NCBI RefSeq assembly: GCF_020005165.1
Contig: NZ_JAHCLT010000001.1
Coordinates: forward strand, 496,001-560,000
Reading direction: 5' to 3'
Origin: Kangiella taiwanensis
GTDB taxonomy: Bacteria; Pseudomonadota; Gammaproteobacteria; Enterobacterales; Kangiellaceae
Length of the DNA stretch: 64,000 bases
The position numbers were made by a program, and so were the translations under genes. Below, piece by piece: positions 43,601-58,920 of this stretch (positions are counted from its first letter, which is position 1; every line of letters starts with the position of its first letter). The notes under the pieces were generated by a model, which had not been told where the DNA came from, made no database searches, and worked only from the letters and a program-made list of their open reading frames with translations.

Positions 43601-43897
43601 GCTCGCGCTATTCGTGAAGCCGGTATTCCATGCCAGCGTATTAATAAGATGTTTGAAGGTCGCCCACATATTGTGGACTACATCAAGAATGGTGAGGTAG
43701 ACTACATTATTAATACAACAGAAGGTAAGCAAGCGATTGCTGACTCTTTCTTGATTCGTCGTAGTGCGCTACAGCATAAAGTACCGTACACCACGACGTT
43801 GGCAGGAGCGGTAGCTTCTTGCGCGGCGATGAAAGAGCATACTCGTAGCACCATTAATTCTGTTCAGGAATTACATAAACAGGTAAAAGCAGTATGA
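40667..43897 (+). CDS. carB: Carbamoyl-phosphate synthase large subunit
   Basis: 1076 residues with the usual duplicated ATP-grasp halves: [19 protein letters not shown] (in part) in the first and [19 protein letters not shown] in the second, each followed by its ATP-grasp region ([28 protein letters not shown]). The C-terminal MGS-like regulatory domain (about 940-1076) is complete. Codon bias is strong. The stop overlaps the greA start (ATGA), so greA is translationally coupled. Confidence 0.99.
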
Positions 43898-44376
43898 ATA
43901 GAGTTCCAATGACTGCAGCTGGCGCAGAACAGTTGCAGGCTGAGTTGAATGACCTTAAAAAAGTGCAGCGTCCTAAAGTGGTCGCTGCCATTGCTGAAGC
44001 TCGTGAGCATGGCGATTTGAAAGAGAACGCTGAATACCATGCAGCGCGTGAACAGCAGGGGTTTATTGAAGGCCGTATTCAAGAAATTGAAGCGAAGCTT
44101 TCAAACTCTCAAATTGTTGATATCACCAAAATTACTAACACGGGCAAAGTGATCTTTGGCTCGACGGTGGTTTTGATTAACCTAGAAGATGGTAAAGACA
44201 CCGAAGTGCGTTATCAGATTGTAGGTGATGACGAAGCTGATATTAAACAAAATAAGCTCTCTATTAATTCACCGATTGCTCGAGGCCTTATTGGTAAAGA
44301 GGAAGGTGATATTGCTGACATTCAAACTCCGGGCGGTAAAGTGGAGTATGAAGTCGCTGAAGTGCTTTATATCTAA
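43894..44376 (+). CDS. greA: Transcription elongation factor GreA
   Basis: GreA stimulates RNA cleavage by backtracked RNA polymerase. 160 residues: coiled-coil start [51 protein letters not shown] (in part) with the tip Asp and Glu of GDLKENAEY, and the C-terminal FKBP-like domain ([16 protein letters not shown]). The order carB-greA with a 4-base overlap is typical. In many relatives yhbY follows; here a 13-kb segment lies between. Confidence 0.98.
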
Positions 44377-44378
44377 GT

Positions 44379-44951
44379 CTATTTCTTGTGTTTAACTAGC
44401 CTTACGGTCTGTAGGGCTAGTCCCATCAAAGTTAAAATCATCCCTACAAAATAAAAAACTCTATTGATTAAAGGTGAAATAGTACGCTCCCCAAGTAAAA
44501 TGTAGGTTCCATCAGTACCTTGGTATGGCTCACGATACTTTTCTCCCATGAATTCATCAGTAACAATAAAGTTTGGTATTAATACCTCGCTTTGATGCTT
44601 GGGGTTTTCATATTGGGAGAGTTGATAAGTATAAGCTGTATTGTTCTGGATGATACCAAAATACGCTAAGGCTATGGATAGAAACCCCGTTAAGATTAAG
44701 GCAGTACCGATATAAAAAAGCCTTCCTAAGGACTCGTTACTGTTTTCTTTAACCTCTTTAGCAAAAGCTATATCTGATATGTGGCAGTGGTAAGTAGTAG
44801 CAATTTTTTTAAGTATTTCAAGCGAAGGAAGTGCTTGGTCATTTTCGAGTTTTGACAAGTAGGATTGTTGAATACCTATTTCTTTAGCGGCCTGACCTTG
44901 AGTCCAACCTTTATCTAATCGAATTTGTCTTAATGCTTTATACTTGACCAT
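44379..44951 (-). CDS. XRE-family regulator with two membrane segments
   Basis: 190 residues. Residues about 5-60 are a Cro/C1-type helix-turn-helix (TQGQAAKEIGIQQSYLSKLENDQALPSLEILKKIA, in part). Two hydrophobic helices follow (about 78-98 and 163-183) with a loop of about 60 residues that would face the periplasm, so it is a membrane-bound one-component regulator. It ends 3 bases from greA on the opposite strand and is divergent from the gene at 45107. A TATTCC-ACAA-GGAATA palindrome (45011-45026) in the shared upstream gap is a candidate operator. Confidence 0.8.
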   Translation of the reverse strand: MVKYKALRQIRLDKGWTQGQAAKEIGIQQSYLSKLENDQALPSLEILKKIATTYHCHISDIAFAKEVKENSNESLGRLFYIGTALILTGFLSIALAYFGIIQNNTAYTYQLSQYENPKHQSEVLIPNFIVTDEFMGEKYREPYQGTDGTYILLGERTISPLINRVFYFVGMILTLMGLALQTVRLVKHKK

Positions 44952-45010
44952 TGTACTGTATTGATAGATTTTTTAATTAAATTCATTAGATTGTGACAAA
45001 TACATTCGAT

Positions 45011-45026
45011 TATTCCACAAGGAATA
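45011..45026. promoter_or_regulatory. Palindrome between the XRE regulator and the 45107 gene
   Basis: TATTCC (45011-45016) and GGAATA (45021-45026) around ACAA, followed by a second GAATATC (45031-45037). Position in a divergent gap next to an XRE gene suggests an operator; no binding data. Confidence 0.4.
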
Positions 45027-45106
45027 TCAAGAATATCAGTAATTTATATTGATTTCATGTTTTGTAAAGATAATTATGAAGATGAAATTAATAACATAGG
45101 AAAGAG

Positions 45107-45535
45107 ATGAGAGTTGCTAAAATAATATTTTTTGTGGGTTTAATGGTGATTGCTTCAGCTGTTTCAGCAGAAACTAAAAAGTATATGTTCGACATTAAAT
45201 TGTTCGAAATCGCGGATGTCAGTAATGGTGTACAAAACTATCAAGAACTGAAGCCATTCACAAACCCAAAAATGATATCCGAAGAAAATAAACCTACAAG
45301 AATGAAAGTATCAGGCGATATACAAAAAGATCTGAATTTTGAATTAGAATTGCTAGCTAAGAGTAATAGGTCTTTTGATATTAACTTTGAATTGTTTAAG
45401 AGTGGAGAGTCGGTATCTGGACCTATAAAAACAGAAAGTTACTCTAGTGATAAGACTTGGCTCATGGTGACAAAGTTTGACGGTAAAAGCTTACTAGTTA
45501 CTGTGGACATGGAGGAGTTGTTAAATCAGAAATAA
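45107..45535 (+). CDS. Hypothetical periplasmic protein
   Basis: 142 residues with a signal peptide (about 1-21, ending VSA). The mature part is beta-rich (MFDIKLFEI, MKVSGDIQKDLNFELELLAK, SFDINFELF, LLVTVDMEEL) and has no cysteine. Not recognised. GGAAAGAG precedes the ATG. It is divergent from the membrane-bound XRE regulator and could be its target, but no pathway is indicated. Confidence 0.6.
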   Translation: MRVAKIIFFVGLMVIASAVSAETKKYMFDIKLFEIADVSNGVQNYQELKPFTNPKMISEENKPTRMKVSGDIQKDLNFELELLAKSNRSFDINFELFKSGESVSGPIKTESYSSDKTWLMVTKFDGKSLLVTVDMEELLNQK

Positions 45536-45575
45536 TTTCACATGGTTTTCACAAGTATGAGATGATAATTCAGTG

Positions 45576-46526
45576 ATGAAAAAAATACCGATAGCGATTA
45601 GTTCTTGCCTACTGGGCAACAAGGTCCGCTTTGATGGCGGACACAAGCAGTCAAAGTATTGTTTAAATACTCTGAGCGATTGGTTTGATTACCAACCAAT
45701 ATGTCCTGAGATGGGCATAGGTATGCCTGCGCCTCGACCGCCAATCCGCTTAATCGAGGATGATGTTAAAGACATCAGAGTCGTTCAGGTGGATGACCAC
45801 TCTTACGATGTCACCGATGAACTTAAAGCATTTGCTAAAGAAAAGCTGCATGACTTAAATGACGTCTGTGGCTACATTGTCATTAGGAACTCCCCAAGTT
45901 GTGGTATGGAGCGTGTTAAGGTTTATCATCAAAATGGAAACCCAGCTGGGCGATCAGATCGTGGTGTGTATATCAATGAGATCATGAATGAGCGACCTGA
46001 GTTACCGGTTGAAGAAGAAGGACGATTGCAGGATGCGAAGTTGAGGGAGAATTTTATCACTCGAGTCTTCGCTTATCAGGATTTTAAAAATAGTGTCAAA
46101 AGTCAGCCGTCAGTTAATGCCTTAGTGAAATTCCATAGTCGTTATAAATATTTAGTCATGGCGCATAGTTATGCTGGGTATAAGTCTCTGGGGAGACTGG
46201 TAGCGAATAATGATGGTTTAGGGCTTGATGACTTAGTTATTACCTATGAAAAAGAGTTGATGTTAGTCTTAAAAAAATTGGCTAATGCAAAATCTCACAG
46301 TAATGTTTTGTATCACATTATGGGCTATCTAAAAGAGGATCTGACGTCTCAAGCAAAGCAAGAGTTGATTGAGGTTGTTGAGCAATATCGAAAAGGCATT
46401 GTGACCTTAATTGCGCCAATCACCTTGATAAATCATTATATAAAGCAGTTTGGTAATGACTATATTGCACAGCAGGCCTACCTAAATCCACACCCAGTCG
46501 AGTTAGGGTTAAGGAATTATATTTAA
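45576..46526 (+). CDS. DUF523-DUF1722 protein (YbgA-type)
   Basis: 316 residues in two domains. DUF523 (about 1-150) has the conserved cysteines in SSCLLGNKVRFDGGHK, QPICPEMGIG and RNSPSCG; stand-alone DUF523 proteins include the iron-sulphur thiouracil desulphidase TudS. DUF1722 (about 185-300) follows (LVKFHSRYKYLVMAHS). E. coli ybgA, adjacent to phr, has the DUF1722 part, and the neighbouring photolyase repeats that pairing. The ATG at 45576 directly follows a GTG codon; no strong ribosome site is seen. The stop overlaps the phrB start (TAATG). Confidence 0.85.
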   Translation: MKKIPIAISSCLLGNKVRFDGGHKQSKYCLNTLSDWFDYQPICPEMGIGMPAPRPPIRLIEDDVKDIRVVQVDDHSYDVTDELKAFAKEKLHDLNDVCGYIVIRNSPSCGMERVKVYHQNGNPAGRSDRGVYINEIMNERPELPVEEEGRLQDAKLRENFITRVFAYQDFKNSVKSQPSVNALVKFHSRYKYLVMAHSYAGYKSLGRLVANNDGLGLDDLVITYEKELMLVLKKLANAKSHSNVLYHIMGYLKEDLTSQAKQELIEVVEQYRKGIVTLIAPITLINHYIKQFGNDYIAQQAYLNPHPVELGLRNYI

Positions 46527-47899
46527 TGTCGAAGAAATTAGTTTGGTTTAGACAAGACCTTCGAGTTAAAGATAACCCTGCGCTTCACCATGCAGCAAAG
46601 TCGGGTGAAGTGATATGTGTATATATCGAGGCAAAAAAACAGCGTGAGCAACATCATGAAGCAAGGGCCAAAGTAGGCTTGATTTATGACTCGTTACTGC
46701 TATTAAGGGAAGACCTCAACAAGCTGAACATTCCTCTTCACATCATGACCTGCGATTATTTTGATGAGCAGAGAGCGCTGATTAAAGAGCTGATCAAAGA
46801 CAAGGATGCAGATGCCTTGTTCTTTAATAATGAGTACCCTATTAATGAGTTGGAGCGTGATAGGGGTGTTGAAAAGGAACTAGGTGCTGATGGAATAGAT
46901 GTGAACCGATTTCATGGTGATATGGCATTAGAGCCGAATCAAGTGAAAAACAAGCAAGGCGATCCTTACCGAGTATTTACCCCTTATAAAAAAGCATGGA
47001 TAGAGGTGCATAAAACAGCGCCGATAGAGCCTATATCAATACCTGACAAGCAGAATGCTAACATTGGAGAGCAAATTACAGAGGACTTTTCCCAAGACTA
47101 TCGTCAAGATCTTTGGCCGCCGGGTGAGCAGGCTGCATTAGAAAGAGTCGATAAGTTTTTAGATAAAGTGGATCAATATAAAAGTAAACGTGATATTCCA
47201 TCCGTCGCTGGAACGAGCTGTATATCACCCTATTTAGCCATTGGTGCGATTTCGTCAAAACAATGTATCCATGCTTTGTTAAACCATTATGATGGTGAGG
47301 AACAGAAACTGTACGGTAATACCTGGTTTTCAGAATTGGTGTGGCGAGAGTTTTACAGGCAAGTATTAATTGATAACCCACAGCTGACTAAGCATAAGCC
47401 GTTTAATACTGATGCTAAAGAAGTTTGGGTTGATAATCAGGAAGCGTTTGATGCATGGAAGGAGGGTAAAACGGGCTTTCCTATCATTGATGCGGCCATG
47501 AGGCAGTTAAATCAAACGGGGTGGATGCATAACCGTTTACGTATGAACGCTGCGATGTTCCTAAATAAGTTATGTCTCGTGGATTGGCGATCGGGTGAGC
47601 GTTATTTTATGGAGACATTAATTGATGGTGATTTTGCATCAAATAATGGCGGTTGGCAGTGGTGTTCTTCAACAGGTGCTGATGGCGCTCCTTATTTCCG
47701 AATTATGAGTCCTTTATCCCAGTCGCAACGTTTTGATCCTGAGGGCGAATTTATTCGTAAGTTAGTCCCAGAGTTAAAAGATCTGGATAAAAAATCCATT
47801 CATAATCCTAGCTCCGAACAACGGCAAGAAGCAGGTTATCCGGAGCCCATTATCGACTATAAGGAATCGCGGAAAAGAGCATTGGAATTACTGGGCTAG
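46526..47899 (+). CDS. phrB: Deoxyribodipyrimidine photolyase (CPD photolyase)
   Basis: 457 residues of the class I photolyase family, which repairs UV-induced cyclobutane pyrimidine dimers using light. Antenna domain start LVWFRQDLRVKDNPALHHA; FAD domain with TSCISPYLAIGAIS, NTWFSELVWREFYRQVL, GWMHNRLRM and FASNNGGWQWCSSTGADGAPYFRI (in part). The electron-transfer tryptophans appear present. Overlaps the DUF523 gene by one base and the convergent gene by four bases. Confidence 0.96.
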   Translation: MSKKLVWFRQDLRVKDNPALHHAAKSGEVICVYIEAKKQREQHHEARAKVGLIYDSLLLLREDLNKLNIPLHIMTCDYFDEQRALIKELIKDKDADALFFNNEYPINELERDRGVEKELGADGIDVNRFHGDMALEPNQVKNKQGDPYRVFTPYKKAWIEVHKTAPIEPISIPDKQNANIGEQITEDFSQDYRQDLWPPGEQAALERVDKFLDKVDQYKSKRDIPSVAGTSCISPYLAIGAISSKQCIHALLNHYDGEEQKLYGNTWFSELVWREFYRQVLIDNPQLTKHKPFNTDAKEVWVDNQEAFDAWKEGKTGFPIIDAAMRQLNQTGWMHNRLRMNAAMFLNKLCLVDWRSGERYFMETLIDGDFASNNGGWQWCSSTGADGAPYFRIMSPLSQSQRFDPEGEFIRKLVPELKDLDKKSIHNPSSEQRQEAGYPEPIIDYKESRKRALELLG

Positions 47900-48432
47900 C
47901 GTTTGATTCGTTCGGCTAGATCGTTGAATTGCCCGTCCATACTTTCTTTACCAAACCACACATTGAGATAGGTTGAGTGGCACTGAGGGTTGTCCATTTG
48001 GTGCAGTGCTTGACCATTCAAATAAAGTTTTAGACCTTCTTCTTGAAATAAATACAGATCATAGTTGTCGCCAGATGTGACGTCACGATAGACATTATTA
48101 AGGGGAGCAAAGTGCTCTGAGCAGCGAGACTTTTCCTCTTCAGTCAGGTTCTCTTCTAAATACTCGATAGCACCCTCAGTAAATTGTTGGCCTTCAACAT
48201 CACGAAGGTATGAAAAGCGCAAAAGCTTTGTCTGGTCATCAAATACATGTTTAGCAGTGTCGCAGTTGGGATAATAAATACCGACATCTACAATATCAAA
48301 GAAGTACTTGGTGACACGTTCTTTATCACACAACTTAAAGGTACCTTGACTGTGTTCAATAGACTTTGGCAACTCAGCCTGGGCGCTGAGGCAGGCTGAG
48401 AGACCAACTAAAGTGAGCATAAGGCGGTTCAT
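47896..48432 (-). CDS. Chalcone-isomerase-like periplasmic protein
   Basis: 178 residues with a signal peptide (about 1-19, ending AQA). DIVDVGIYYPNCD, LLRFSYLRDVEGQQFTEGAIE, and LYLNGQALHQMDNPQCHSTYLNVWFG (in part) match the bacterial chalcone-isomerase-like family, whose plant relatives bind fatty acids or isomerise flavonoids. In photolyase/Cfa clusters of other gammaproteobacteria such a gene recurs, so a role in membrane lipid handling is inferred. Its ATG overlaps the stop of the NTF2-like gene. Confidence 0.78.
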   Translation of the reverse strand: MNRLMLTLVGLSACLSAQAELPKSIEHSQGTFKLCDKERVTKYFFDIVDVGIYYPNCDTAKHVFDDQTKLLRFSYLRDVEGQQFTEGAIEYLEENLTEEEKSRCSEHFAPLNNVYRDVTSGDNYDLYLFQEEGLKLYLNGQALHQMDNPQCHSTYLNVWFGKESMDGQFNDLAERIKR

Positions 48433-48995
48433 TAAAGACTATCCCTGACTTTTCTTACGAAATAGCCAATGTAAGGCAGGTGTTGATAAAAGCCTTCTGC
48501 GCCATCCCAATAGTCTTGATGGAGAATGATTTTTCCTGCTTCGTTGAAGCGAAGCTGAGTCATGCCGATCGACACAGAACGAATATCCCTGCCTTTCGCG
48601 GTGAACTCCATGACCATTTTCCAGCGTAGGTAGTAATCCGTATCGCTTTTACTCACATCCAGTATTTCAACCGTTGTTGTTTGGACATTCTCGGCAGTTT
48701 CTTCCATGTAAGGGATTAACTCATCAATGGTACGGAAGGTTTTAAAAGTATCATTGAAATAGAAAGAGTCAGCGTAAACTTCTTTGATGTTGGCCGCTTT
48801 TGCATCTTTATGAAAGTCTTTGAATACGACCTCAAAGTGAGATGCGGGATCGGGATGCGAGCTAGTCGACGGTATCGTTTTGATGACTGTTAAAAAATCT
48901 TCAACACGGTCGTTGTACATGCGATCTCCTCCAGAAGAACAGCAAATAATAGCCATACTCAGTATTAAGGCTGTAATAAGTTTTAAAAGCTTCAT
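48432..48995 (-). CDS. NTF2/SnoaL-like exported protein
   Basis: 187 residues. The N-terminal hydrophobic stretch ends in CCSSGG, a poor-fit lipobox, so either a lipoprotein or a secreted protein. The rest matches the SnoaL-like (NTF2) cone fold: YADSFYFNDTFKTFRTIDELIPYM (in part), YLRWKMVMEFTAKGRDIRSVSIGMTQLRF (in part) and HQDYWDGAEGFYQHLP. Homologues occur in photolyase-Cfa gene clusters. It is divergent from the desaturase gene and coupled to the chalcone-isomerase-like gene. Confidence 0.75.
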   Translation of the reverse strand: MKLLKLITALILSMAIICCSSGGDRMYNDRVEDFLTVIKTIPSTSSHPDPASHFEVVFKDFHKDAKAANIKEVYADSFYFNDTFKTFRTIDELIPYMEETAENVQTTTVEILDVSKSDTDYYLRWKMVMEFTAKGRDIRSVSIGMTQLRFNEAGKIILHQDYWDGAEGFYQHLPYIGYFVRKVRDSL

Positions 48996-49130
48996 TGTGC
49001 GAATACCTACTTTATGATGTTATAAGAGAATATAAGTAGGGACGTCAAATATTTGTGAATAAGCTGTTCACAGGATCTTCACGAATTGGGGCTTAATCTT
49101 GGCATCAACAGTACTTGAGGATTTTTTCAA
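48996..49130. promoter_or_regulatory. Divergent control region of the lipid-modification genes
   Basis: Three repeat structures in 135 bases: CCTACTT/AAGTAGG (49006-49012 and 49034-49040), TGTGAA/TTCACA (49054-49059 and 49067-49072), and TTCAC at 49067 and again at 49078, a direct repeat with 11-base spacing as favoured by OmpR-family response regulators. Which of these the cluster's response regulator binds is unknown. Confidence 0.5.
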
Positions 49131-50018
49131 TTGAAACAGTGGTTTGATAACAAAGCGGTAGGGACTTTTGCAGAAGACACGGTCGACTGGCCGCGAGTGA
49201 TCCCCTATATATTACTTCACCTAACATGCCTATTTGTATTGGTTGTGGGTGTGAGCTGGATAGCAATTGTGATCTTTGCAGCCAGTTACTTTATCCGTAT
49301 GTTTGCAATTACGGCCTTCTATCATCGTTATTTCTCACACAAAAGCTTTAAAACAAGCCGTTTTGTGCAGTTAGCTTTTGGTTTCTTGGGAGCTACAGCG
49401 ACACAAAGAGGTCCACTGTGGTGGGCTGCACATCACCGACATCACCACAAACATGCTGACACAGAGAAAGATACTCATTCGCCGCGTCACGGATTCCTAA
49501 GAAGCCATACGCTATGGTTTTTAACAAAAAAGAACTTCCCAACTAATGAAGATCGGGTAAAAGATTTAGCTCGATATAAAGAGTTGAAGTGGTTAGACCG
49601 GTATGATGTGGTTCCACCAATCATTTACGCGTTCTTAATTTTACTCCTTGGTACTTACATCGAGCATGTTCATCCTACTCTGGGCGCGACTAAGTGGCAG
49701 ATATTGATCTGGGGCTTCTTCATCTCGACAGTAGTGCTATCCCATGTCACTTTTTTGATTAATTCTCTAGCTCATCGCTGGGGCTACAGAAGCTTTGATA
49801 CAGATGATGACAGTCGAAATAATCCGTTATTAGCACTGCTGACCCTCGGAGAGGGGTGGCACAATAACCATCATAAATTTCCAGCCTCAGTTCGCCAAGG
49901 CTTACGATGGTGGGAATTAGATGTTAGTTATTACTTACTATTGTTAATGGAAAAGCTAGGTTTAGTCTGGGATTTAAAAAAACCTGAAGGCACAAAAGTA
50001 CAGGAGCAAAGAGTTTGA
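49131..50018 (+). CDS. Membrane fatty-acid (acyl) desaturase
   Basis: 295 residues, TTG start with GAGGA about 9 bases upstream. Four membrane segments and the three histidine boxes of the OLE1/DesC-like family: HRYFSH (65-70), HHRHHH (101-106) and HNNHH (near 242), binding the di-iron centre that inserts a cis double bond. It probably makes unsaturated phospholipid or acyl-CoA chains that the following Cfa-type genes act on. The stop overlaps the next start (TTGA). Confidence 0.92.
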   Translation: MKQWFDNKAVGTFAEDTVDWPRVIPYILLHLTCLFVLVVGVSWIAIVIFAASYFIRMFAITAFYHRYFSHKSFKTSRFVQLAFGFLGATATQRGPLWWAAHHRHHHKHADTEKDTHSPRHGFLRSHTLWFLTKKNFPTNEDRVKDLARYKELKWLDRYDVVPPIIYAFLILLLGTYIEHVHPTLGATKWQILIWGFFISTVVLSHVTFLINSLAHRWGYRSFDTDDDSRNNPLLALLTLGEGWHNNHHKFPASVRQGLRWWELDVSYYLLLLMEKLGLVWDLKKPEGTKVQEQRV

Positions 50019-51271
50019 AGGTAGCAGTCATTGGTTCTGGAATTTCAGGTATTTCGGCAGCAGAATATTTATCAGAAAAGTGCGATGTCACCGTATTTGA
50101 AAAGAATGATCGAGTTGGAGGGCATGCAGATACACATAGAATTGATGTCGGTGGTGAGGAAATCGATGTCGATACCGGATTTATTGTATTTAACCCAAAT
50201 AATTATCCCCGTTTTAGCCAGCTTTTGGAAAAATATCAGGTTGCCTACAAAGATAGTGATATGAGCTTTGCAGTTTCAAACCGCTTTACTGGTTTGGAAT
50301 ATAATGCGACCAACCTCAACACGTTATTTTGCCAGCGCAGGAACCTTCTTAACCCAAAGTTTTATCGAATGATAAAAGATATCATTCGGTTTTACCGTGA
50401 GGCATCAGAGTTATTAGAGGATGAGTTTTCTGATGTGTCACTGGGGCAGTACCTCCGTAAGAACAAGTACAGCGACTATTTTATTAATGAGCATATTATT
50501 CCGATGGCCTCAGCGTTGTGGTCTGGTAAAGCAGACTTAATTATGAATTTTCCAGCAAAGTATCTAGTAGCCTTTATGAAAAACCATAACATGATGCAAC
50601 TGGATAACCGACCTGTGTGGAAAACTATTGATGGAGGCTCAAAAAAATATTTACAGGCGATAACTGAAAAAGCGAATTTCACAGTAAAACTAAATTCAAC
50701 AATAAAGCATATTGTGAGAGACACAGCTAACGTGAAAATTGTCATGGAGGATGGAACAGAGGATATTTACGATCACATTGTTATGGCCTGCCATAGTGAC
50801 CAGGCGTTAATGTTATTAGAAAACCCAACACCACAAGAAGACGCTGTCTTGAGAGCCATAAAATATCAGCGTAATGAAGTTTGCTTACATTGGGACACTG
50901 AACTCTTACCGCGCAACAAAAATGCTTGGGCGAGCTGGAATGTACTCCGTAATGAGAGTAGCAAGGAGCAATGTACGGTGAGCTACTATATGAATTTATT
51001 GCAATCTTTACCTACATCCATGCCTGTAATCGTAAGTTTAAACATGAGTGAGCAGGTAGATACCAATAAGGTATGGAAGTATTTAGAGTATGAACATCCA
51101 GTTTATACACAAGATACCATTGATGCCCAAAAAAGAAAGATTGATATTCAAGGTAAGAATAGGAGTTACTTTTGTGGTGCTTATTGGGGTTGGGGATTTC
51201 ATGAAGATGGAGCTCGGAGTGGTTTAGAGGCTGCGCAGCAGTTGCTGCGTGATAATGGATATGCTGAATAA
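50015..51271 (+). CDS. FAD-dependent amine-oxidase-like oxidoreductase
   Basis: 418 residues, TTG start. The dinucleotide fold KVAVIGSGISGISAAEYLSE (in part) is followed by VFEKNDRVGGHADTHRI and a C-terminal FCGAYWGWGFHEDGARSGLEAAQ (in part), typical of the predicted NAD/FAD-binding family (COG2907) that accompanies Cfa and DUF1365. Relatives are linked to furan or cyclopropane fatty acid formation in Rhodobacter; the exact reaction here is inferred, perhaps oxidation of a methylated acyl chain. Overlaps the DUF1365 gene by 11 bases. Confidence 0.88.
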   Translation: MKVAVIGSGISGISAAEYLSEKCDVTVFEKNDRVGGHADTHRIDVGGEEIDVDTGFIVFNPNNYPRFSQLLEKYQVAYKDSDMSFAVSNRFTGLEYNATNLNTLFCQRRNLLNPKFYRMIKDIIRFYREASELLEDEFSDVSLGQYLRKNKYSDYFINEHIIPMASALWSGKADLIMNFPAKYLVAFMKNHNMMQLDNRPVWKTIDGGSKKYLQAITEKANFTVKLNSTIKHIVRDTANVKIVMEDGTEDIYDHIVMACHSDQALMLLENPTPQEDAVLRAIKYQRNEVCLHWDTELLPRNKNAWASWNVLRNESSKEQCTVSYYMNLLQSLPTSMPVIVSLNMSEQVDTNKVWKYLEYEHPVYTQDTIDAQKRKIDIQGKNRSYFCGAYWGWGFHEDGARSGLEAAQQLLRDNGYAE

Positions 51272-52082
51272 TAGTCTTGTTAAGGGTTGGGTTAGACACC
51301 GACGATACCTGCCAAAGCCACACGAATTTGATTATGACATGTCATGGACTTTGCTGGATCTAGATGACATTGATGAGCAATTTAGAAAAAGTAAACTGTG
51401 GTCGGTTGAGAAGGTTAATATTGTTTCATATCGTGCTGACGATTTTCACCAAGGGCCAAATAGAAAGCTTGAAGGAGGCTCTAACCTGAGAAGCCAACCT
51501 TTGAACAACAAGCAGAATATAATCAACAGCATCCAGTCCAAAACAGGAAAAGAGTTTACTGGTAAGGTTTTTATGATGTCGCACTTGAGGAACTATGGAT
51601 ATAACTTTAACTCCGTGTGTTTCTACTTTTGTTTTGGACATGACTCAAATTTAAAATTTATTGTTAGTGAGATCACAAATACCCCTTGGGGGGAGCGGCA
51701 CAGTTATGTTTTTGACTGCGAAAATGATAATGAAAAAGCGAGTCAGGCTGCAAAAAATAAAGTAACTCACCAGTTTAACTTCAGTAAAGAGTTTCATGTA
51801 TCACCCTTTATTCAAATGGATATGCGATATCGTTGGACTTTTATCATTAGCGCAACAGAACTACGAGTCCATATGGCAGTATTGACAGAGAATGAACATA
51901 AATATTTTGACGCCACCTTCACGGGGGAGCTTTTACCATTAACCAAAAGTAACATGAGAAAGTTCGCCTTTAGTCATGCATTGCAGCCTCAAAAAATGAG
52001 TCTATTGATATATTGGCAGGCTTTAAAACTTTGGCTTAAGCGGTTTAGAGTTTTTGACCACCCCAAACATAGCCAGTCTTAG
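51261..52082 (+). CDS. DUF1365 family protein
   Basis: 273 residues from the ATG at 51261; starts at 51249 and 51255 are less like the family, whose members begin near LV.GWVRHRRYLP. DYDMSWTLLDLDDID, VFMMSHLRNYGYNFNSVCFYFCF (in part), EVTNTPWGERHSYVFD-like EITNTPWGERHSYVFD, and HVSPFIQMDMRYRW match DUF1365 (COG3496). Always found with the COG2907 flavoprotein and Cfa; its activity is not known. Tight overlaps indicate co-translation. Confidence 0.88.
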   Translation: MLNNSLVKGWVRHRRYLPKPHEFDYDMSWTLLDLDDIDEQFRKSKLWSVEKVNIVSYRADDFHQGPNRKLEGGSNLRSQPLNNKQNIINSIQSKTGKEFTGKVFMMSHLRNYGYNFNSVCFYFCFGHDSNLKFIVSEITNTPWGERHSYVFDCENDNEKASQAAKNKVTHQFNFSKEFHVSPFIQMDMRYRWTFIISATELRVHMAVLTENEHKYFDATFTGELLPLTKSNMRKFAFSHALQPQKMSLLIYWQALKLWLKRFRVFDHPKHSQS

Positions 52083-52090
52083 GAGATTAG

Positions 52091-53371
52091 ATGTCCCAGC
52101 TGACACGCGTAGAAAAGCGAAATAGTACTACTGATATTGAACCAGTAACAGCAAACAGTGGTATGTTGAAAGTTATCCGTAACCAAGTAAAAAATACACT
52201 TGGGCGTATAAGCAATGGGTCTATTACTGTGACAGACCCAGTTGAGACATATGTTTGTGGTGAGCAACAAACAGATCTTGCAGTAACCATAACCATTCGA
52301 GATTTAGACTTTTACCGCCTAGTTGCACTAGAAGGAAGTAATGGCGCTGCGCAAGCTTATATTGATAGCAAGTGGGATACCGATAACCTAACCGGTTTAG
52401 TTCAAATACTTGTAAGAAATATAGAGTTATTGGATGAGATGGAGGGTGGTCTTGCTTGGATAAAAAATAGTGTTTTAAAAGTATGGCATTATTTTAATAA
52501 AAACAGCATATCGGGAAGTAAAGGCAACATTTCTGCTCATTACGATCTCGGGAATGAATTTTTTAAACTCTTTCTAGACAAGCATATGATGTACTCCTCG
52601 GCCATATATGAGGCTGATGAGTCGTTAGAAGAGGCATCTGAAAGAAAGCTAAAAACGATTTGTGAAAAGCTTGATTTAAAGCCAACAGATAAGGTTATTG
52701 AGATTGGGACGGGCTGGGGCGGAATGGCAATTTATGCCGCTAAAAATTATGGCTGTCATGTCACTACAACGACCATCTCGGAGCAACAATATCAGTACGC
52801 TAAGAAGAGAATTATTGAAGAGGGACTCGAGGATAAGGTTGAGTTACTTAAGAATGACTATCGCGATCTGAGAGGAAGCTTTGACAAGTTAGTGTCGATT
52901 GAGATGATCGAAGCTGTAGGGCATCATTACCTCGATACTTACATAAAGAAATGTAGCGAATTATTAAAATCAAATGGTTTGGCACTTATCCAAGCAATTA
53001 CGATAGAAGACCGTCGTTACAAACAAGCGTTAAAGTCAGTTGACTTTATTAAGAGATATATCTTTCCTGGTAGCTTTATTCCTTGCGTCTCAGCGGTTGT
53101 TTCTAGCTCCGCACATAATTCTGACTTAAGGCTGATTAATCTGGAAGACTTTGGCGAAAGCTATGCGAAGACACTGAATCATTGGCGTGATCGATTCAAC
53201 GCCAACTTAGAAGAGGTTAAAGGCCAAGGATACAGTGACCAGTTTATTCGTATGTGGGAGTTTTATTTGTGTTATTGCGAAGGGGGCTTCATAGAAAAGT
53301 CAATCAGTGATACTCATCTCCTGTTTGCAAAACCTGAGAATAAGAGGAAGCAATGGCTGGCACAACGTTAA
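52091..53371 (+). CDS. Cyclopropane-fatty-acyl-phospholipid synthase family methyltransferase
   Basis: 426 residues. The Cfa signature SAHYDLGNEFFKLFLDKHMMYSSAIY (in part), the SAM motif VIEIGTGWGGMAIYAAKNYG and the conserved LVSIEMIEAVGHHYLDTY (Glu of the active site) and RMWEFYLCYCEGGF are complete. It transfers a methylene or methyl group to a double bond in phospholipid acyl chains. AGGAG stands 7 bases upstream. The stop overlaps the DUF2878 gene by 19 bases. Confidence 0.93.
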   Translation: MSQLTRVEKRNSTTDIEPVTANSGMLKVIRNQVKNTLGRISNGSITVTDPVETYVCGEQQTDLAVTITIRDLDFYRLVALEGSNGAAQAYIDSKWDTDNLTGLVQILVRNIELLDEMEGGLAWIKNSVLKVWHYFNKNSISGSKGNISAHYDLGNEFFKLFLDKHMMYSSAIYEADESLEEASERKLKTICEKLDLKPTDKVIEIGTGWGGMAIYAAKNYGCHVTTTTISEQQYQYAKKRIIEEGLEDKVELLKNDYRDLRGSFDKLVSIEMIEAVGHHYLDTYIKKCSELLKSNGLALIQAITIEDRRYKQALKSVDFIKRYIFPGSFIPCVSAVVSSSAHNSDLRLINLEDFGESYAKTLNHWRDRFNANLEEVKGQGYSDQFIRMWEFYLCYCEGGFIEKSISDTHLLFAKPENKRKQWLAQR

Positions 53372-53913
53372 ATTCCAATAACATTATCAACTTTATCCTG
53401 TTCCAATTAGTATGGGTTGGTTTTGTATTGGGTGCAGCTAAAGACTTCATTTGGCTAGGTTGCGTCTTTTTGGTTGTGATGTTGGCTTGGCAGTTATGGT
53501 CAACACGTCGACATGACGGTGACATTATAGCTATTGGCGCTTGCGCTGTAGCAGGGTTTGTATTAGCTTCAGCTTGGTCAGCGAGCGATTTGATTGTCTA
53601 CCAAAACCATTGGCCTCTTGACCAAATTGCTCCTTGGTGGATCGTTGCGCTGTGGATTTCCTTCGGAGCAAGTTTCAATCATTCACTCGGCTGGATACAA
53701 AGCAGTCCTTATCTTGCTGGTGCCTTGGCCGCTGTTGGTGGGCCTCTGTCTTATTTAGCAGCTGAGCGTGTTGGTGCTGTGGTGATTCATAAGCCATGGA
53801 TAACATTAACGCTAATGGCAATTGGTTGGTTCGTGATAGCGTTTGTGTTAACACTGATTGTTGACCGTGCTCAGCAAGCTGAACATTCTGGACTTGCTAA
53901 TGCACCCTACTAA
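53353..53913 (+). CDS. DUF2878 membrane protein
   Basis: 186 residues with about six membrane segments. FILFQLVWVGFVLGA, WWIVALWISFGASFNHSLGW and GGPLSYLAAERVGAV match DUF2878, a family found almost only beside Cfa/COG2907 genes. Function unknown. It overlaps the Cfa gene before it and the DUF1295 gene behind it. Confidence 0.85.
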   Translation: MAGTTLNSNNIINFILFQLVWVGFVLGAAKDFIWLGCVFLVVMLAWQLWSTRRHDGDIIAIGACAVAGFVLASAWSASDLIVYQNHWPLDQIAPWWIVALWISFGASFNHSLGWIQSSPYLAGALAAVGGPLSYLAAERVGAVVIHKPWITLTLMAIGWFVIAFVLTLIVDRAQQAEHSGLANAPY

Positions 53914-54676
53914 TTTCTTAATCGTACTACTAGGCTTAAATTTACTGTCGCAGGCAGTAGCTTGGTGGTGGCAGAAAAAACATCAACATGCTGATATTGC
54001 TGATGTGGTTTGGTCAGGAATGATCGTGGTTAATGGGGGGCTTATTCTTTGGCAGGCAACCGGCGATCTTTTCCATAAAAGCATTATTCTAATCATTCCT
54101 GTACTTTGGTACTTAAGATTGTTTTTGCATTTGGCTGAACGTTACGATTTATCGAATGAAGATGGACGCTATGCCTATTTAAGGAACTACTGGGAAGATA
54201 ATACTCAGGCAAAATTCTTTGCATTTTTTATGGGACAAGGCTTAATCATCAGTCTGTTTAGCTTTCCAGCTTGGGTATTAGCAAATCACTCGTCCGAGGT
54301 AAGTTTTTGGGATATTTTTGGTCTGTTAATTATTCTCTTTTCATATCTTGGAGTGTGGTTATCTGATCGCCAGTTGCGACAGTTTAAGAAAAGCGCAGAA
54401 AGTAAGGGAAAGGTTTGTGATGTTGGGTTATGGAAATATTCTAGGCATCCGAACTACTTCTTTGAGTGGACCCACTGGTTTGCATATCCATTATTATCAA
54501 TAGGCTCAGATCAACTGTGGATGATGTGGCTATATCCATTCCTGATGTTAGCATTTCTTCTTAAGTTCACGGGGATTCCTTTTAATGAACAACAAAATAT
54601 TCGCTCTAAAGGGGATGCTTACCGTGAGTATCAAAAACGTACGAATAAATTTTTTATAGGTCCCACCAAGAGTTAA
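53900..54676 (+). CDS. DUF1295 membrane protein, steroid 5-alpha-reductase-like
   Basis: 258 residues from the ATG at 53900, which begins a better match than the upstream alternative. Six or seven membrane segments, then GLWKYSRHPNYFFEWTHWFAYPLL (in part) and QNIRSKGDAYREYQKRTNKFF (in part), the cofactor-binding end of the DUF1295/ICMT-like superfamily of membrane reductases and methyltransferases. In this cluster it might reduce or methylate a modified acyl chain. Overlaps DUF2878 by 14 bases. Confidence 0.85.
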   Translation: MHPTNFLIVLLGLNLLSQAVAWWWQKKHQHADIADVVWSGMIVVNGGLILWQATGDLFHKSIILIIPVLWYLRLFLHLAERYDLSNEDGRYAYLRNYWEDNTQAKFFAFFMGQGLIISLFSFPAWVLANHSSEVSFWDIFGLLIILFSYLGVWLSDRQLRQFKKSAESKGKVCDVGLWKYSRHPNYFFEWTHWFAYPLLSIGSDQLWMMWLYPFLMLAFLLKFTGIPFNEQQNIRSKGDAYREYQKRTNKFFIGPTKS

Positions 54677-54693
54677 TCTGAGAGGAACATAAC

Positions 54694-55737
54694 TTGATTA
54701 AAACGATTATTAGCATGATGGAGTCAGGAACCTTACCTGACACTGTAATTAGAGCAGGCATAAGAAAACTGTGTAAACAGCGTTTGGAAGAAGAGCATAT
54801 TAATGATATCGAGGCGCAGAGTGAGCAGTATGATCGTTTTCTTCAGGAGTTACGTCGCAGTGATATTGCTATAAAAACAGACAAAGCCAATGAGCAGCAC
54901 TATGAGGTTCCTGCAGATTTTTATTTATTATCTCTTGGCGAGCACCTGAAGTATAGCGGGTGTTTATGGGACGAGAATACACAGACGCTTTCGGAAGCCG
55001 AAGAAAACATGCTAGAGCTGTATACAAAGCGTGGAGAGTTTGTCGATGGGCAAAGTATTTTAGAGCTGGGGTGTGGCTGGGGTTCGTTAACATTGTACCT
55101 TGCTAAAAAATATCCAAACAGCCAGATTACGACGATTTCAAACTCAAGTTCTCAGCGCCAGTTTATCGAGTCAAAAGCGAAAGAACGTGGACTGAGCAAT
55201 ATTGAAGTTATTACGGTCGATATTAATCAATTTGAAACCGATAAAACCTTTGACCGCATTGTATCAATTGAAATGTTTGAGCATATTCGTAATTACCAGC
55301 AATTGTTTCAGCGTATAGAGCAGTGGCTAAATGATGAAGGGAAAGTCTTTTTGCACATATTTTGTCATCGATATTTGATGTATCCTTTTGAAGAAGAAGG
55401 CGACGATAACTGGATGGGTAAATATTTTTTCAGTGGGGGGCAAATGCCTGCTGCAGATACCTTCTTACACTTCCAAGGTAATTTGGATCTAGAAAAGCGC
55501 TGGTTATTGAGCGGTAAACACTATGAAAAAACTTCTAATGCTTGGCTAGAGAATACCGATAAAAACAAAGATTCTATTTTATCAGTGTTTGAAAAAGTGT
55601 ATGGTGAAAAAGAGGCCAAAATTTGGTTACAGCGTTGGCGTATATTTTTTATGTCTTGTGCTGAGCTATTTGGTTTGCATAACGGAAACGAGTGGTTAAT
55701 AGCACACTATCGATTCAGCAAAACTAAACACAACTAA
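54694..55737 (+). CDS. Second Cfa-related methyltransferase, coclaurine-N-methyltransferase-like
   Basis: 347 residues, TTG start with GAGAGGA upstream. HYEVPADFYLLSLGEHLKYSGCLW (in part) replaces the bacterial HYDLGNEFF signature; then SILELGCGWGSLTLYLAKKYPNSQI (122-146, in part), ITTISNSSSQRQFIE, and SIEMFEHIRNYQ. This is the branch that contains plant coclaurine N-methyltransferases and bacterial relatives of unknown substrate. Two Cfa-superfamily enzymes in one operon suggest two methylation steps. The stop abuts the histidine kinase ATG with no gap. Confidence 0.88.
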   Translation: MIKTIISMMESGTLPDTVIRAGIRKLCKQRLEEEHINDIEAQSEQYDRFLQELRRSDIAIKTDKANEQHYEVPADFYLLSLGEHLKYSGCLWDENTQTLSEAEENMLELYTKRGEFVDGQSILELGCGWGSLTLYLAKKYPNSQITTISNSSSQRQFIESKAKERGLSNIEVITVDINQFETDKTFDRIVSIEMFEHIRNYQQLFQRIEQWLNDEGKVFLHIFCHRYLMYPFEEEGDDNWMGKYFFSGGQMPAADTFLHFQGNLDLEKRWLLSGKHYEKTSNAWLENTDKNKDSILSVFEKVYGEKEAKIWLQRWRIFFMSCAELFGLHNGNEWLIAHYRFSKTKHN

Positions 55738-57024
55738 ATGGCAAGAAAGCAAAAGAAAATACACCATAAACTTGTTAGGGCGATGTTGATACAGCTCGTC
55801 CTGATTAGTGGTGTGACTTTGCTTAGTGTATATGGTGCTGCAAAAGTCGTTGAAAAAGTATTAATTAAACAAGCATTAGAAGGTGAGGCTGAGTTTTATT
55901 GGAATCACTATAAGGATAATCCAACCAGCAACCTGCCTCGCACCCTAAATCTGACTGGTTATATGGATAAAAGCCCGCACTCAGAGCCTGTTCCGAAAGA
56001 TATCGCGAAATTACCAGTGGGCTATCAGCGACTAGAAACTCGTGACAAGCGCCCTTTAGTTCATGTTTCTGAGAAGTATGGCAGAAAATTATACTTGGTT
56101 TTTGAAGAAGGACAGGTTGCTAAACTGGCTCTGTTCTTTGGTATCACACCGTTGGCATTGGTCTTACTGATTATATATTTGCCTGCCTGGATCAGTTACT
56201 ACATGGCAAAGCGAGCTGTGTCTCCGGTGATAAAGCTATCACGCAAAATGGAAAAGGTTGATGCAGATCAAGGCTTTGAAATCGACTTTTCAGATTTGGA
56301 GCAAGATGCTGATGCGGAAGTCGATGTCTTGCTTAAAGCTTTCAAGCAGTATGCCCGTAAAGTAGAAGAGTACGTGGATCGTGAGAAAAACTTTACACGG
56401 TATGCAAGCCATGAATTAAGAACCCCCTTAGCCGTACTAAAGGGCTCACTTGCGCTATTAGAACGTCAAGAGCTTGATCAAAGACAGCAAGCAGTGGTCA
56501 GCCGGATGCACCCGATGATCCGAGAGATGGAAGAGTTATTAGAAGCGCTATTATTGTTGTCACGTGATCAAACACCTGAGGAAAGTGAAACCCCAATTGC
56601 TCTAGATAAGTTAGTAGAAGAGCAGTTATTTCAAATTCAAAAAATTAATTCGCACAAAGATATTCAAGTATTAAAGGCTTTGGATGATAGCCTGACAGAA
56701 AGAGTCCCTGAAAGGCTGTTCTGCATTTGCATTAACAATCTTATTAGCAACGCTTTCAATTACACAGAAAGCGGTACTATCAGTGTAAGCATCAAGGGTA
56801 GAGATATTACTATTGAGGATACTGGCTGTGGTATCCACCCAGCTGCACTTAAACGAATCCACGAGCCATTTTATCGAGAGAACCGAGAGAATATCAAAAT
56901 TAAAGGATTCGGACTTGGCCTATCTATCGTTTACCGTATTTGCGAACAGCTTGGTTGGCAGCTAGTGATCGAGAGCTACCAAGGTGAGGGCACTAAAGCA
57001 ATACTGACGATTCCTGAACGTTAA
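55738..57024 (+). CDS. Sensor histidine kinase
   Basis: 428 residues. Two membrane helices (about 16-38 and 129-152) flank a periplasmic domain of about 90 residues, then a short HAMP-like linker, HisKA with His225 (ASHELRTPLAVLKG) and HATPase with NLISNAFNYTESG, DTGCGIHPAAL and GFGLGLSIVYRI. The start codon directly follows the methyltransferase stop, so the kinase is made from the lipid operon. The 3' end overlaps the convergent response regulator by four bases. Confidence 0.93.
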   Translation: MARKQKKIHHKLVRAMLIQLVLISGVTLLSVYGAAKVVEKVLIKQALEGEAEFYWNHYKDNPTSNLPRTLNLTGYMDKSPHSEPVPKDIAKLPVGYQRLETRDKRPLVHVSEKYGRKLYLVFEEGQVAKLALFFGITPLALVLLIIYLPAWISYYMAKRAVSPVIKLSRKMEKVDADQGFEIDFSDLEQDADAEVDVLLKAFKQYARKVEEYVDREKNFTRYASHELRTPLAVLKGSLALLERQELDQRQQAVVSRMHPMIREMEELLEALLLLSRDQTPEESETPIALDKLVEEQLFQIQKINSHKDIQVLKALDDSLTERVPERLFCICINNLISNAFNYTESGTISVSIKGRDITIEDTGCGIHPAALKRIHEPFYRENRENIKIKGFGLGLSIVYRICEQLGWQLVIESYQGEGTKAILTIPER

Positions 57025-57707
57025 TCTTTGGGAGGTACAATCTTCAGGCCTAAGCTCGGAACGGTTTCTAATAGAGCGCAGTCAAAAGGCTTATCGATCA
57101 CTTTACGAAGGTTGTAGAGATGGCTTCTCAAAACGTCACTATCTGGAACCAGGTCACCCCAAAGTTCACGCTCTATCTCTTCTCGGGACACGAGTTCAGG
57201 CGAGCGTCGCATCAGCATCTTCAGTATTTGTAACCCTGTAGGCGATAGTTTTAGTTCTGAGCCAGCGCGGGTCACTTTCATGGTTTTTGGATCCAGCTCT
57301 AAGTCATGGATCTTTAAAGTCTTACTGCTGAAATCACCTTTATGACGCTTAATGATAGACTTTAGGCGAGCGTCCAGTTCTTCAAAGTCAAACGGCTTTA
57401 TTAGGTAATCATCAGCCCCAGTATCGAACCCTTCTAGCTTGTCTTGCAGTTGGTCCCTTGCAGTTAGCATCAGTACAGGGATATCCGATTCAGCTTCTTG
57501 GCGTACTTTCCGGCAAATTTCGTAGCCATTGATCCCGGGTAGCATGATATCAAGGATTAGAGCATCGTAACTGTTGGTTAAAGCGAGATTAAGTCCTGAC
57601 GTTCCGTCATTGGCGTAATCGACAATATAGCCGCACAACTCGAGAAACTCACCAGTCGTTGCCGCTAATTCAGCATGGTCTTCAACTAACAGGACGCTAT
57701 AAGCCAT
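57021..57707 (-). CDS. OmpR-type response regulator
   Basis: 228 residues: receiver domain with phosphoacceptor Asp53 (LILDIMLPGINGYEI), Asp10, Lys104 (LIKPFDFEELD), and a C-terminal winged helix (about 130-225; LKLSPTGLQILKMLMRRSPELVSREEIERELWG, in part). It is the likely partner of the kinase, but lies tail to tail with it and 16 bases downstream of yhbY, so it is probably expressed from the yhbY promoter and the two partners are on different transcripts. Confidence 0.93.
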   Translation of the reverse strand: MAYSVLLVEDHAELAATTGEFLELCGYIVDYANDGTSGLNLALTNSYDALILDIMLPGINGYEICRKVRQEAESDIPVLMLTARDQLQDKLEGFDTGADDYLIKPFDFEELDARLKSIIKRHKGDFSSKTLKIHDLELDPKTMKVTRAGSELKLSPTGLQILKMLMRRSPELVSREEIERELWGDLVPDSDVLRSHLYNLRKVIDKPFDCALLETVPSLGLKIVPPKD

Positions 57708-57723
57708 TGATATCCTTTGCGAT

Positions 57724-58035
57724 TTATTTAGGTAGTATGATTTTTACATCATCTGAGCGACGATACAAGGCTAAAATATGCCCAATAACTTGAACTTCTT
57801 GGCCCTTGGTCTCCTTGCAGATGGCTTCTATGATAGCTTTTTTGTCTTCACGCTCTTCTGCACGAACCTTGATCTTTATCAGCTCATGATGATTAAGAGC
57901 CAAGTTAATTTCTTCGAGAACGTTCTCTGTCAGGCCTTTATCGCCAATCATGACGACTGGTTTGAGGTTATGTGCTTTGCTGCGCAAGAACTTGATTTGC
58001 GTCTTACTTAAAGGTGTTTGTTTAGATTGAGACAT
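57724..58035 (-). CDS. yhbY: YhbY, CRM-domain RNA-binding protein
   Basis: 103 residues, one CRS1/YhbY domain: LSKTQIKFLRSKAHNLKPVVMIGDKGLTENVLEEI (in part) with the GxxG-type loop GDKG. YhbY binds pre-50S ribosomes. It is divergent from rlmE with the promoters in the gap 58036-58128, the normal order in gammaproteobacteria; the response regulator behind it is not part of that order. Confidence 0.95.
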   Translation of the reverse strand: MSQSKQTPLSKTQIKFLRSKAHNLKPVVMIGDKGLTENVLEEINLALNHHELIKIKVRAEEREDKKAIIEAICKETKGQEVQVIGHILALYRRSDDVKIILPK

Positions 58036-58128
58036 TTGATGAACTTAATAGTGAGAATTGCAGTTATTTTACCTTAAAAACGGTACAATAGAGACTTGTT
58101 TTACCGAATACAAGTGATTTTCTACGAC

Positions 58129-58749: not shown

Positions 58750-58920
58750 TGCACCGCTAAACTAAGGCGGTAAAACTATGGAATGTGTTACGTTTTGTTA
58801 CGAGACTAGTTTTAAAAAGCTAGATTTATTAAGCAATTAGGCTTATTAATGCTACGAAGCATGGCATAATACTGAGTCAGAAAGTAAAGACAGGAATCTG
58901 TCACAATTGAGGTTCGAATT

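What the first reader, a model, noticed from the sequence alone, without database searches (positions are those of the whole stretch)
44379..57707. Photolyase-desaturase-methyltransferase island under two-component control
Between greA and yhbY, which are near neighbours in many gammaproteobacteria, lie 15 genes that appear to form one functional unit: photolyase and DUF523/DUF1722 protein, chalcone-isomerase-like and NTF2-like exported proteins, and an overlapping run of acyl desaturase, COG2907 flavoprotein, DUF1365, Cfa methyltransferase, DUF2878, DUF1295, a second methyltransferase and a histidine kinase. Related sets without the desaturase, second methyltransferase and kinase are known next to an ECF sigma/ChrR pair and respond to singlet oxygen. 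Here the sigma/anti-sigma pair is absent and a kinase/regulator pair is present. Inference: light or photo-oxidative stress triggers repair of DNA and conversion of newly desaturated acyl chains to a methylated, cyclopropane or furan form.
Basis: partly seen in the sequence, partly recalled or inferred. Interest (0 to 1): 0.8.

Follow-up and report, generated by a model that had tools for sequence, protein, structure and literature searches.

The report
Two-component-controlled furan fatty acid operon
A marine bacterium carries, beside a light-driven DNA repair gene, what looks like a full set of genes for making furan fatty acids (membrane lipids thought to protect against reactive oxygen), apparently switched on together by a sensor-regulator pair instead of the controllers known from other bacteria.

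Summary
The 15 genes are real. Thirteen form a conserved Kangiella island; the first two are variable. The overlapping run is best read as a furan fatty acid (FuFA) operon: COG2907 = UfaD, DUF1365 = UfaO, first Cfa-like protein = UfaM, second methyltransferase = FufM family, plus an acyl desaturase, DUF2878 and DUF1295. A cyclopropane product is unlikely: the Cfa bicarbonate ligand His266 is Gln in 90 of 90 cluster copies, kept in 5 of 5 true Kangiella Cfas.

Control by the kinase/regulator pair is supported by a promoter code found here, TTCAC-N6-TTCAC-N11-(-10 box). It precedes the FuFA operon (20 of 20 Kangiella), the photolyase operon (17 of 20 exact, 3 with one mismatch) and an unlinked dehydrogenase (12 of 20), and its presence tracks the kinase across taxa. 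In 229 gammaproteobacteria, ChrR stands beside UfaO in 7 and this kinase in 10 others.

Known chemistry, wiring that my paper searches did not find described. No lipid, light response or DNA binding has been measured.

The parts
45537..45569 (+). predicted regulator site TTCAC-N6-TTCAC and -10 box GATAAT (45564-45569) of the DUF523/DUF1722-photolyase operon
   Evidence: exact match; same place exact in 17 of 20 Kangiella, one mismatch in 3
45573..46526 (+). DUF523 (2-thiouracil desulfurase-like) + DUF1722 protein
   Evidence: Pfam
46526..47899 (+). deoxyribodipyrimidine photolyase, PhrB type
   Evidence: Pfam; NCBIfam NF007955 6e-150, 500 bits, just under the cut-off of 506
47896..48432 (-). 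chalcone isomerase-like protein (Chalcone_3)
   Evidence: Pfam; beside the operon in several kinase-linked loci
48432..48995 (-). SnoaL/NTF2-like exported protein
   Evidence: Pfam; beside the operon in several kinase-linked loci
49027..49059 (-). predicted divergent site TTCAC-N6-TTGAC with -10 box TATTCT, for the SnoaL/chalcone-like pair
   Evidence: one mismatch; an exact divergent site is present in 10 of 19 kinase-linked loci
49067..49099 (+). predicted regulator site TTCAC-N6-TTCAC and -10 box TAATCT (49094-49099) of the FuFA operon
   Evidence: exact in 20 of 20 Kangiella
49131..50018 (+). acyl desaturase of the acyl-CoA desaturase 1 type
   Evidence: Pfam; nearest solved structure 4ymk, 3.7e-33
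50015..51271 (+). UfaD candidate, COG2907-type FAD protein
   Evidence: Pfam; role by gene order and family as in PMC7380195
51249..52082 (+). UfaO candidate, DUF1365
   Evidence: Pfam 1.2e-68; UfaO holds DUF1365
52091..53371 (+). UfaM candidate, Cfa-like methyltransferase with Ser/Ala/Gln at E. coli Cys139/His240/His266
53353..53913 (+). DUF2878 membrane protein, role unknown
   Evidence: Pfam
53858..54676 (+). DUF1295 membrane protein, role unknown (true start may lie downstream of the listed TTG)
   Evidence: Pfam
54694..55737 (+). FufM-family candidate, coclaurine N-methyltransferase-like
   Evidence: 6gkv 5.5e-82 over 4-343 of 347; FufM 37.9% identical to AT4G33110
55738..57024 (+). sensor histidine kinase with a conserved region of about 90 residues between two hydrophobic segments (segments read by eye)
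   Evidence: Pfam; alignments A4, A5
57021..57707 (-). OmpR-type response regulator, convergent with the kinase
   Evidence: Pfam; NCBIfam nearest CopR/RppA/PhoB types, all under cut-off

Best explanation
The island is a membrane and DNA photoprotection unit whose core is a furan fatty acid operon. Proposed chain: the desaturase and the FabA route supply cis-unsaturated phospholipid chains; UfaM C-methylates the double bond; UfaD adds a conjugated double bond; UfaO closes the furan ring with oxygen from O2; the FufM-family enzyme methylates the ring to a dimethyl furan, a scavenger of reactive oxygen. The kinase reads a signal at the envelope and phosphorylates the OmpR-type regulator, which binds TTCAC-N6-TTCAC in place of a -35 box, 11 bp before the -10 box, and activates the FuFA operon, the SnoaL/chalcone-like pair, the photolyase operon and an unlinked short-chain dehydrogenase. 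Shown here: gene content, conservation, active-site signature, motif, its spacing, its co-occurrence with the kinase. Inferred: the products and order of reactions (from alphaproteobacterial homologues), that this regulator is the one that binds the motif, and the light or oxygen-radical trigger.
For: Each of the four enzyme families of the proven pathway (PMC7380195; sections 4, 9, 10 read) has a member in one operon. Cfa-like protein: His266 to Gln in 90 of 90 cluster copies, five of them from ChrR-linked clusters. Second methyltransferase and UfaO co-occur: 25 of 32 genomes with the former have UfaO, against 67 of 229 overall, 19 within 10 kb. Motif: exact upstream of the desaturase in 16 of 19 kinase-linked loci, 0 of 42 others; 13 of 14 unlinked loci with a one-mismatch site have the kinase elsewhere, against 2 of 14 site-less ones tested; -10 box at one spacing in 16 of 24 sites; 102 promoter-pattern matches against 9 for the reversed pattern in 27 genomes.
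Against: No FuFA, light response or binding is measured. The class II type of promoter is inferred from spacing. Kangiella has FabA, so the desaturase's job is unclear. RSP1087-1089 beside ufaDO were dispensable for FuFA in R. sphaeroides, so some operon genes may do something else. Halomonas UfaM in E. coli gave cyclic chains as well. 3 of 19 kinase-linked loci have no exact site (one of them a one-mismatch site), and 2 site-less loci have the kinase. The simple repeat alone is weakly enriched: 74 matches against 46 reversed-control matches in 20 Kangiella genomes. Some promoter-pattern matches lie in long open frames or before genes with no evident link. Related kinase/regulator paralogues could share the motif.
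Confidence: 0.7

Rival explanations
1. Cyclopropane or 10-methyl-branched fatty acids: the Cfa-like enzymes close rings or methylate, and the flavoprotein reduces the product, as in 10-methyl stearate synthesis.
For: Pfam and NCBIfam place the first methyltransferase nearest Cfa; UfaM of Halomonas gave cyclic chains too; a flavoprotein plus methyltransferase makes 10-methyl stearate in Mycobacterium (PMC5660069, title and abstract start in listing).
Against: Bicarbonate ligand His266 lost in 90 of 90, against kept in 5 of 5 true Kangiella Cfas; DUF1365 (UfaO family) directly downstream of the flavoprotein; FufM-family enzyme in the operon.
Confidence: 0.1
2. The FuFA operon is real, but the second methyltransferase acts on an amine (as its plant relatives do), so the product is monomethyl-FuFA plus an unrelated methylated head group or amine.
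For: The nearest solved structures are plant N-methyltransferases.
Against: FufM, shown to methylate a furan carbon in vitro and in vivo, is itself 37.9% identical to a plant protein that I recall as coclaurine-type; gene neighbours are lipid genes, in other classes too.
Confidence: 0.15
3. The kinase/regulator pair is only a neighbour with its own envelope targets; the repeat belongs to another regulator and the photolyase link is incidental.
For: No direct binding data; in a Hahella-type MAG sites stand between another OmpR-type regulator and an efflux gene (L268), so related regulators may share the motif; 24 of 74 Kangiella repeat sites fall outside the three named targets.
Against: Site presence follows the kinase even where the pair is unlinked (13 of 14 against 2 of 14), with the regulator homologue beside the kinase in 12 of 12 loci read.
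Confidence: 0.15

Closest known systems
FuFA pathway of Rhodobacter sphaeroides and Rhodopseudomonas palustris (UfaM, UfaD, UfaO, FufM), under ECF11 sigma-E/ChrR in R. sphaeroides (PMC7380195, PMC6852236)
   Same: All four enzyme families; UfaD followed by UfaO
   Different: There ufaM (RSP2144) or fufM (RPA0924) lie away from ufaD-ufaO and ChrR controls; here all four are in one operon with a desaturase, no ChrR, and a kinase/regulator pair
Light-inducible photolyase-UfaM cluster of Pseudomonas under class II LitR and short LOV (PMC9758184)
   Same: Photolyase, FAD oxidoreductase, UfaM and a short-chain dehydrogenase in one regulon
   Different: Controller is a MerR-type repressor with a LOV photoreceptor, not a two-component system; no desaturase or FufM named in the passages read
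Blue-light/ROS regulon of Vibrio cholerae under sigma-E/ChrR and MerR (PMC5241685)
   Same: Cfa-annotated gene (VC1122) and photolyase-family genes induced together
   Different: Controllers; the Cfa-annotated gene was read there as cyclopropane synthase
Halomonas sp. YLGW01 ufaM-ufaD-ufaO set (PMC12089945)
   Same: Consecutive FuFA genes in a gammaproteobacterium; UfaM activity shown in E. coli
   Different: No FufM, desaturase or kinase described in the passages read

Membership tests
Bacterial FuFA pathway | UfaD-family flavoprotein next to a UfaO-family (DUF1365) protein | tested here: met
   Pfam; adjacency in the window and in most of the 80 loci; direct alignment to RSP1091/RSP1090 was not possible
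Bacterial FuFA pathway | UfaM methyltransferase distinct from cyclopropane synthase | tested here: met
   Residue signature, 90 of 90 at His266; that proven UfaM proteins share it was not tested except by five ChrR-linked neighbours
Bacterial FuFA pathway | FufM family member | tested here: inconclusive
   Same plant-like methyltransferase family by two steps; FufM itself (Q6NBA4) was not in reach
Bacterial FuFA pathway | furan fatty acids in phospholipids | not testable with these tools
   needs GC-MS of lipids
ECF11 sigma-E/ChrR core regulon | ChrR anti-sigma factor in the genome | tested here: not met
   0 matches to TIGR02451 in G000; the search rings in Caulobacter as control
Cyclopropane fatty acid synthase | bicarbonate ligands Glu239, His266, Tyr317 (PMC11387697, passages) | tested here: not met
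   Glu and Tyr kept, His266 replaced by Gln
OmpR/PhoB-type two-component system | HisKA/HATPase_c kinase, receiver plus Trans_reg_C regulator, direct-repeat operator | tested here: met
   11-bp-period repeat; binding itself not tested
LitR/LOV light-controlled cluster | MerR-type LitR with B12 domain beside the cluster | tested here: not met
   no such gene among the ORFs 42500-60000; the rest of the genome was not searched for it

The most novel reading that the evidence does not exclude
Gammaproteobacteria have a third, independent wiring of the photo-oxidative FuFA and DNA-repair response: a dedicated envelope-sensing two-component system that reads membrane lipid damage (perhaps oxidised furan chains themselves) through its conserved sensor region of about 90 residues, with its own promoter code and a regulon of photolyase, dimethyl-FuFA synthesis and a dehydrogenase in Kangiella, and of FuFA synthesis, lipocalin and a repair-type nuclease in Methylophaga.
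Probability: 0.35. Interest if true: 0.78.

Novelty: new variant of a known kind. Interest (0 to 1): 0.64.

Why it matters
It predicts dimethyl-furan lipids in gammaproteobacteria (Kangiella, Methylophaga, Methylococcaceae, Lysobacterales) from sequence alone; it gives a residue test that separates UfaM from Cfa, which family searches confuse; and it names a kinase, a regulator and a promoter code that can be tested at the bench. How bacteria without photosynthesis perceive photo-oxidative membrane damage is open, and a kinase tied to the lipids that singlet oxygen destroys would be a handle on it.

Tried and rejected
Desaturase as sole source of unsaturation: rejected, FabA over its cut-off in 19 of 20 Kangiella genomes (the 20th, G014, has only a weak match).

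HTH gene (44379-44951) and 142-aa gene (45107-45535) as parts of the island: rejected.

Site at 51907 (TTGAC-N6-TTCAC inside UfaO, conserved in several Kangiella) as a promoter: set aside as coding sequence. The third exact repeat in the window, at 63260, lies outside the island and was not followed.

Sigma-70 and terminator consensus scans: nothing above shuffles (25 promoter-like against 33.5; 12 terminator-like against 10.1).

A wide Kangiella regulon: azurin (2 genomes), BFD-type ferredoxin (5 sites of one type), a small-GTPase operon (3) and DUF11-like proteins (3) have sites. After the 38 island sites and 12 dehydrogenase sites are taken from the 74, 24 remain, fewer than the 46 reversed-control matches. 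Not claimed.

Mutual exclusion of ChrR and kinase beside UfaO: 0 overlaps of 7 and 10, Fisher p 0.30: a trend only. The other Fisher values ignore relatedness and are not used as proof; one of them used 2 of 16 instead of 2 of 14, because two of the 16 handles (L085, L086) have no desaturase.

Rows dropped before counts: I used the 33 best of 52 desaturase rows (E 1e-85 or better) and the 21 best of 44 kinase rows (E 1e-80 or better); by eye none of the dropped rows lies within 10 kb of UfaO. Kinase searches scored only the 7 best candidates per class genome, so kinase counts there are lower bounds. Contig ends can hide neighbours.

Structure prediction: the UfaO job was accepted but had not finished; the sensor-region job was never accepted. 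No structural claim is made and no fold search was run.

Papers: ten searches. 'Furan fatty acid' with 'histidine kinase' gave 5 papers, none about such control by title and abstract start; with 'Kangiella' 0. Only open-access papers are held.
Full report
WHAT IS THERE. The 15 genes between greA and yhbY are at the stated places and, but for one, match the families named. The genome has 2.56 Mb in six contigs. Contigs as long as those of genus members G018 and G003 are titled Kangiella. Twenty of 20 genus members have the second methyltransferase at 63-100% identity. In the relatives whose island I read (L035, L036, L185, L186, L190, L191, and part of it in G002 on L224), the order from DUF523/DUF1722 onward is the same. 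The HTH gene and the 142-aa gene are not stable and are left out of the island.

WHAT IT MAKES. In R. sphaeroides and R. palustris UfaM methylates cis-vaccenate in phospholipids, UfaD (RSP1091, FAD-binding) desaturates the product, UfaO (RSP1090, holding DUF1365) gives the furan with oxygen from O2, and FufM (RPA0924) methylates the furan to the dimethyl form (PMC7380195; abstract, sections 4, 9, 10 and passages read). The window operon has a member of each family. The link for FufM is indirect: FufM is 37.9% identical to Arabidopsis AT4G33110 (PMC10940516, passages read), and the second methyltransferase matches plant coclaurine-type methyltransferases along its length at 5.5e-82, against 1e-25 for the best cyclopropane synthase. 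That AT4G33110 is of the coclaurine type is recalled. In a draw of 299 genomes of the phylum, 19 have this protein, 10 of them outside the class; of those 10 loci (1.5 kb flanks) DUF1295 is beside it in 5 and UfaD in 3.

UFAM, NOT CFA. E. coli Cfa holds a catalytic bicarbonate through Glu239, His266 and Tyr317 (PMC11387697, passages read). I aligned 90 cluster copies, 89 of them within 3 kb of UfaO or UfaD, one a known duplicate (L147 is the contig of L055), five from ChrR-linked clusters. His266 is Gln in 90; His240 is Ala in 89; Cys139 is Ser in 86 (Ala 3, Cys 1); Glu239 and Tyr317 are kept in 90. Five true Kangiella Cfas keep all of them. I read this as the switch from ring closure to methylated olefin. 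This genome has no close Cfa: its other two CMAS matches have 37 and 32 bits. Against a clean switch: E. coli with Halomonas UfaM showed cyclic chains besides the methylated one (PMC12089945, passages read).

HOW COMMON. In an even draw of 229 gammaproteobacteria UfaO is in 67, the second methyltransferase in 32, both in 25, and within 10 kb of each other in 19. The desaturase lies within 10 kb of UfaO in 20, the kinase in 10; desaturase and methyltransferase are both near in 14. So the extended operon recurs, but 48 of 67 UfaO genomes lack the methyltransferase nearby. Among the 80 nearest methyltransferase loci (of 550 relatives found, itself a capped list; many contigs short) full-length matches were UfaO 71, desaturase 60, kinase 22, regulator 20, one of the last weak and unrelated (L073, 32%). 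They include Methylophaga, Methylococcaceae, Lysobacterales, Porticoccus and Hahella-type records.

HOW IT IS CONTROLLED. Upstream of the desaturase in kinase-bearing loci I saw an 11-bp-period direct repeat, TTCAC-N6-TTCAC. In the window it is exact at 45537 and 49067 (3 matches in 64 kb, 0.21 expected, none of 100 shuffles with 3). Tests follow. (a) Of the 80 loci, 61 have a desaturase with upstream sequence: an exact site stands within 250 bp in 16 of 19 kinase-linked and 0 of 42 others. (b) Of those 42, 14 have a one-mismatch site; 13 of the 14 have a full-length kinase homologue elsewhere in the genome (E 5e-130 or better), against 2 of 14 site-less loci tested out of 28; two further handles without a desaturase have none. 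The regulator homologue is beside the kinase in 12 of 12 loci read. (c) A TAxxxT box starts 11 bp after the repeat in 16 of 24 sites, 0 to 3 at the other offsets from 5 to 17. (d) Repeat plus -10 pattern in 27 genomes, nearly all chosen for the kinase and some of them the source of the pattern: 102 matches against 9 for the reversed pattern. The repeat alone is much less specific: 74 against 46 in 20 Kangiella. (e) In these 20, the desaturase site is exact in 20; the photolyase-operon site is exact in 17 and has one mismatch in G004, G006 and G018. I read the genes directly in 8 of the 20; in the other 12 the sites are placed by their distance from the methyltransferase. (f) The scan pointed to a gene outside the island: a short-chain dehydrogenase with the site 38-39 bp before its start and a -10-like box, in 12 of 20 genomes (the other 8 were not examined). 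Homologues at 31-37% identity lie between kinase and regulator in Porticoccus (L039) and near the cluster in L041, L093 and L164. A short-chain dehydrogenase is also part of the light-inducible Pseudomonas cluster (PMC9758184, passages read); orthology was not tested. In Methylophaga sites precede a lipocalin in 4 of 4 genomes from which I fetched regions, and an exonuclease/GIY-YIG protein in 2; I fetched 20 regions for the 102 matches, and others precede genes with no evident link. A lipocalin also stands by the methyltransferase in 9 of the 80 loci, as judged from one member.

REGULATORY SWAP. ChrR over its cut-off is in 7 of 229 genomes, all 7 with UfaO within 10 kb; the kinase is near UfaO in 10 others. 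No overlap, though the numbers are too small for significance. With the LitR/LOV system of Pseudomonas this would be a third kind of controller of FuFA and photolyase genes.

WHAT IS NOT SHOWN. Lipids, light response, DNA binding and the signal. The kinase has a conserved region of about 90 residues between two hydrophobic segments that I read by eye and matches no sensor-domain family. DUF2878, DUF1295, the SnoaL and the chalcone-like proteins have no known role; RSP1087-1089 were dispensable for FuFA, and whether they correspond was not tested. The claim that the kinase-FuFA link is undescribed rests, over open-access papers only.

Noticed in passing
L187:1562-1601 (G000:C3:457561) and 11 other Kangiella loci: The -10 box before the dehydrogenase lies only about 7-8 bp from its start codon, and the one before DUF523/DUF1722 ends 3 bp before the listed GTG start: leaderless transcripts or later start codons.
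   Followed up: no
L205, L223 (azurin); L197, L202, L217 (BFD-type ferredoxin): Single-clade sites of the same promoter pattern before an azurin gene and upstream of a small ferredoxin gene; possible lineage-specific targets, not above the control count.
   Followed up: partly
L258, L264: Methylophaga exonuclease plus GIY-YIG protein (UvrC/Cho-like, my reading) with the promoter pattern upstream; may take the place of photolyase as DNA-repair member.
   Followed up: partly
L268:2311-2343 and 2338 on the other strand: In a Hahella-type MAG the pattern stands between an OmpR-type regulator and an outer membrane efflux gene, so a paralogous system may use a similar site.
   Followed up: no
G000:C3:14370-15200: A second, more distant acyl desaturase (391-aa frame, 1.2e-44) in the same genome, away from the island.
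   Followed up: no
window 63260-63275: A third exact TTCAC-N6-TTCAC match, minus strand, outside the island.
   Followed up: no
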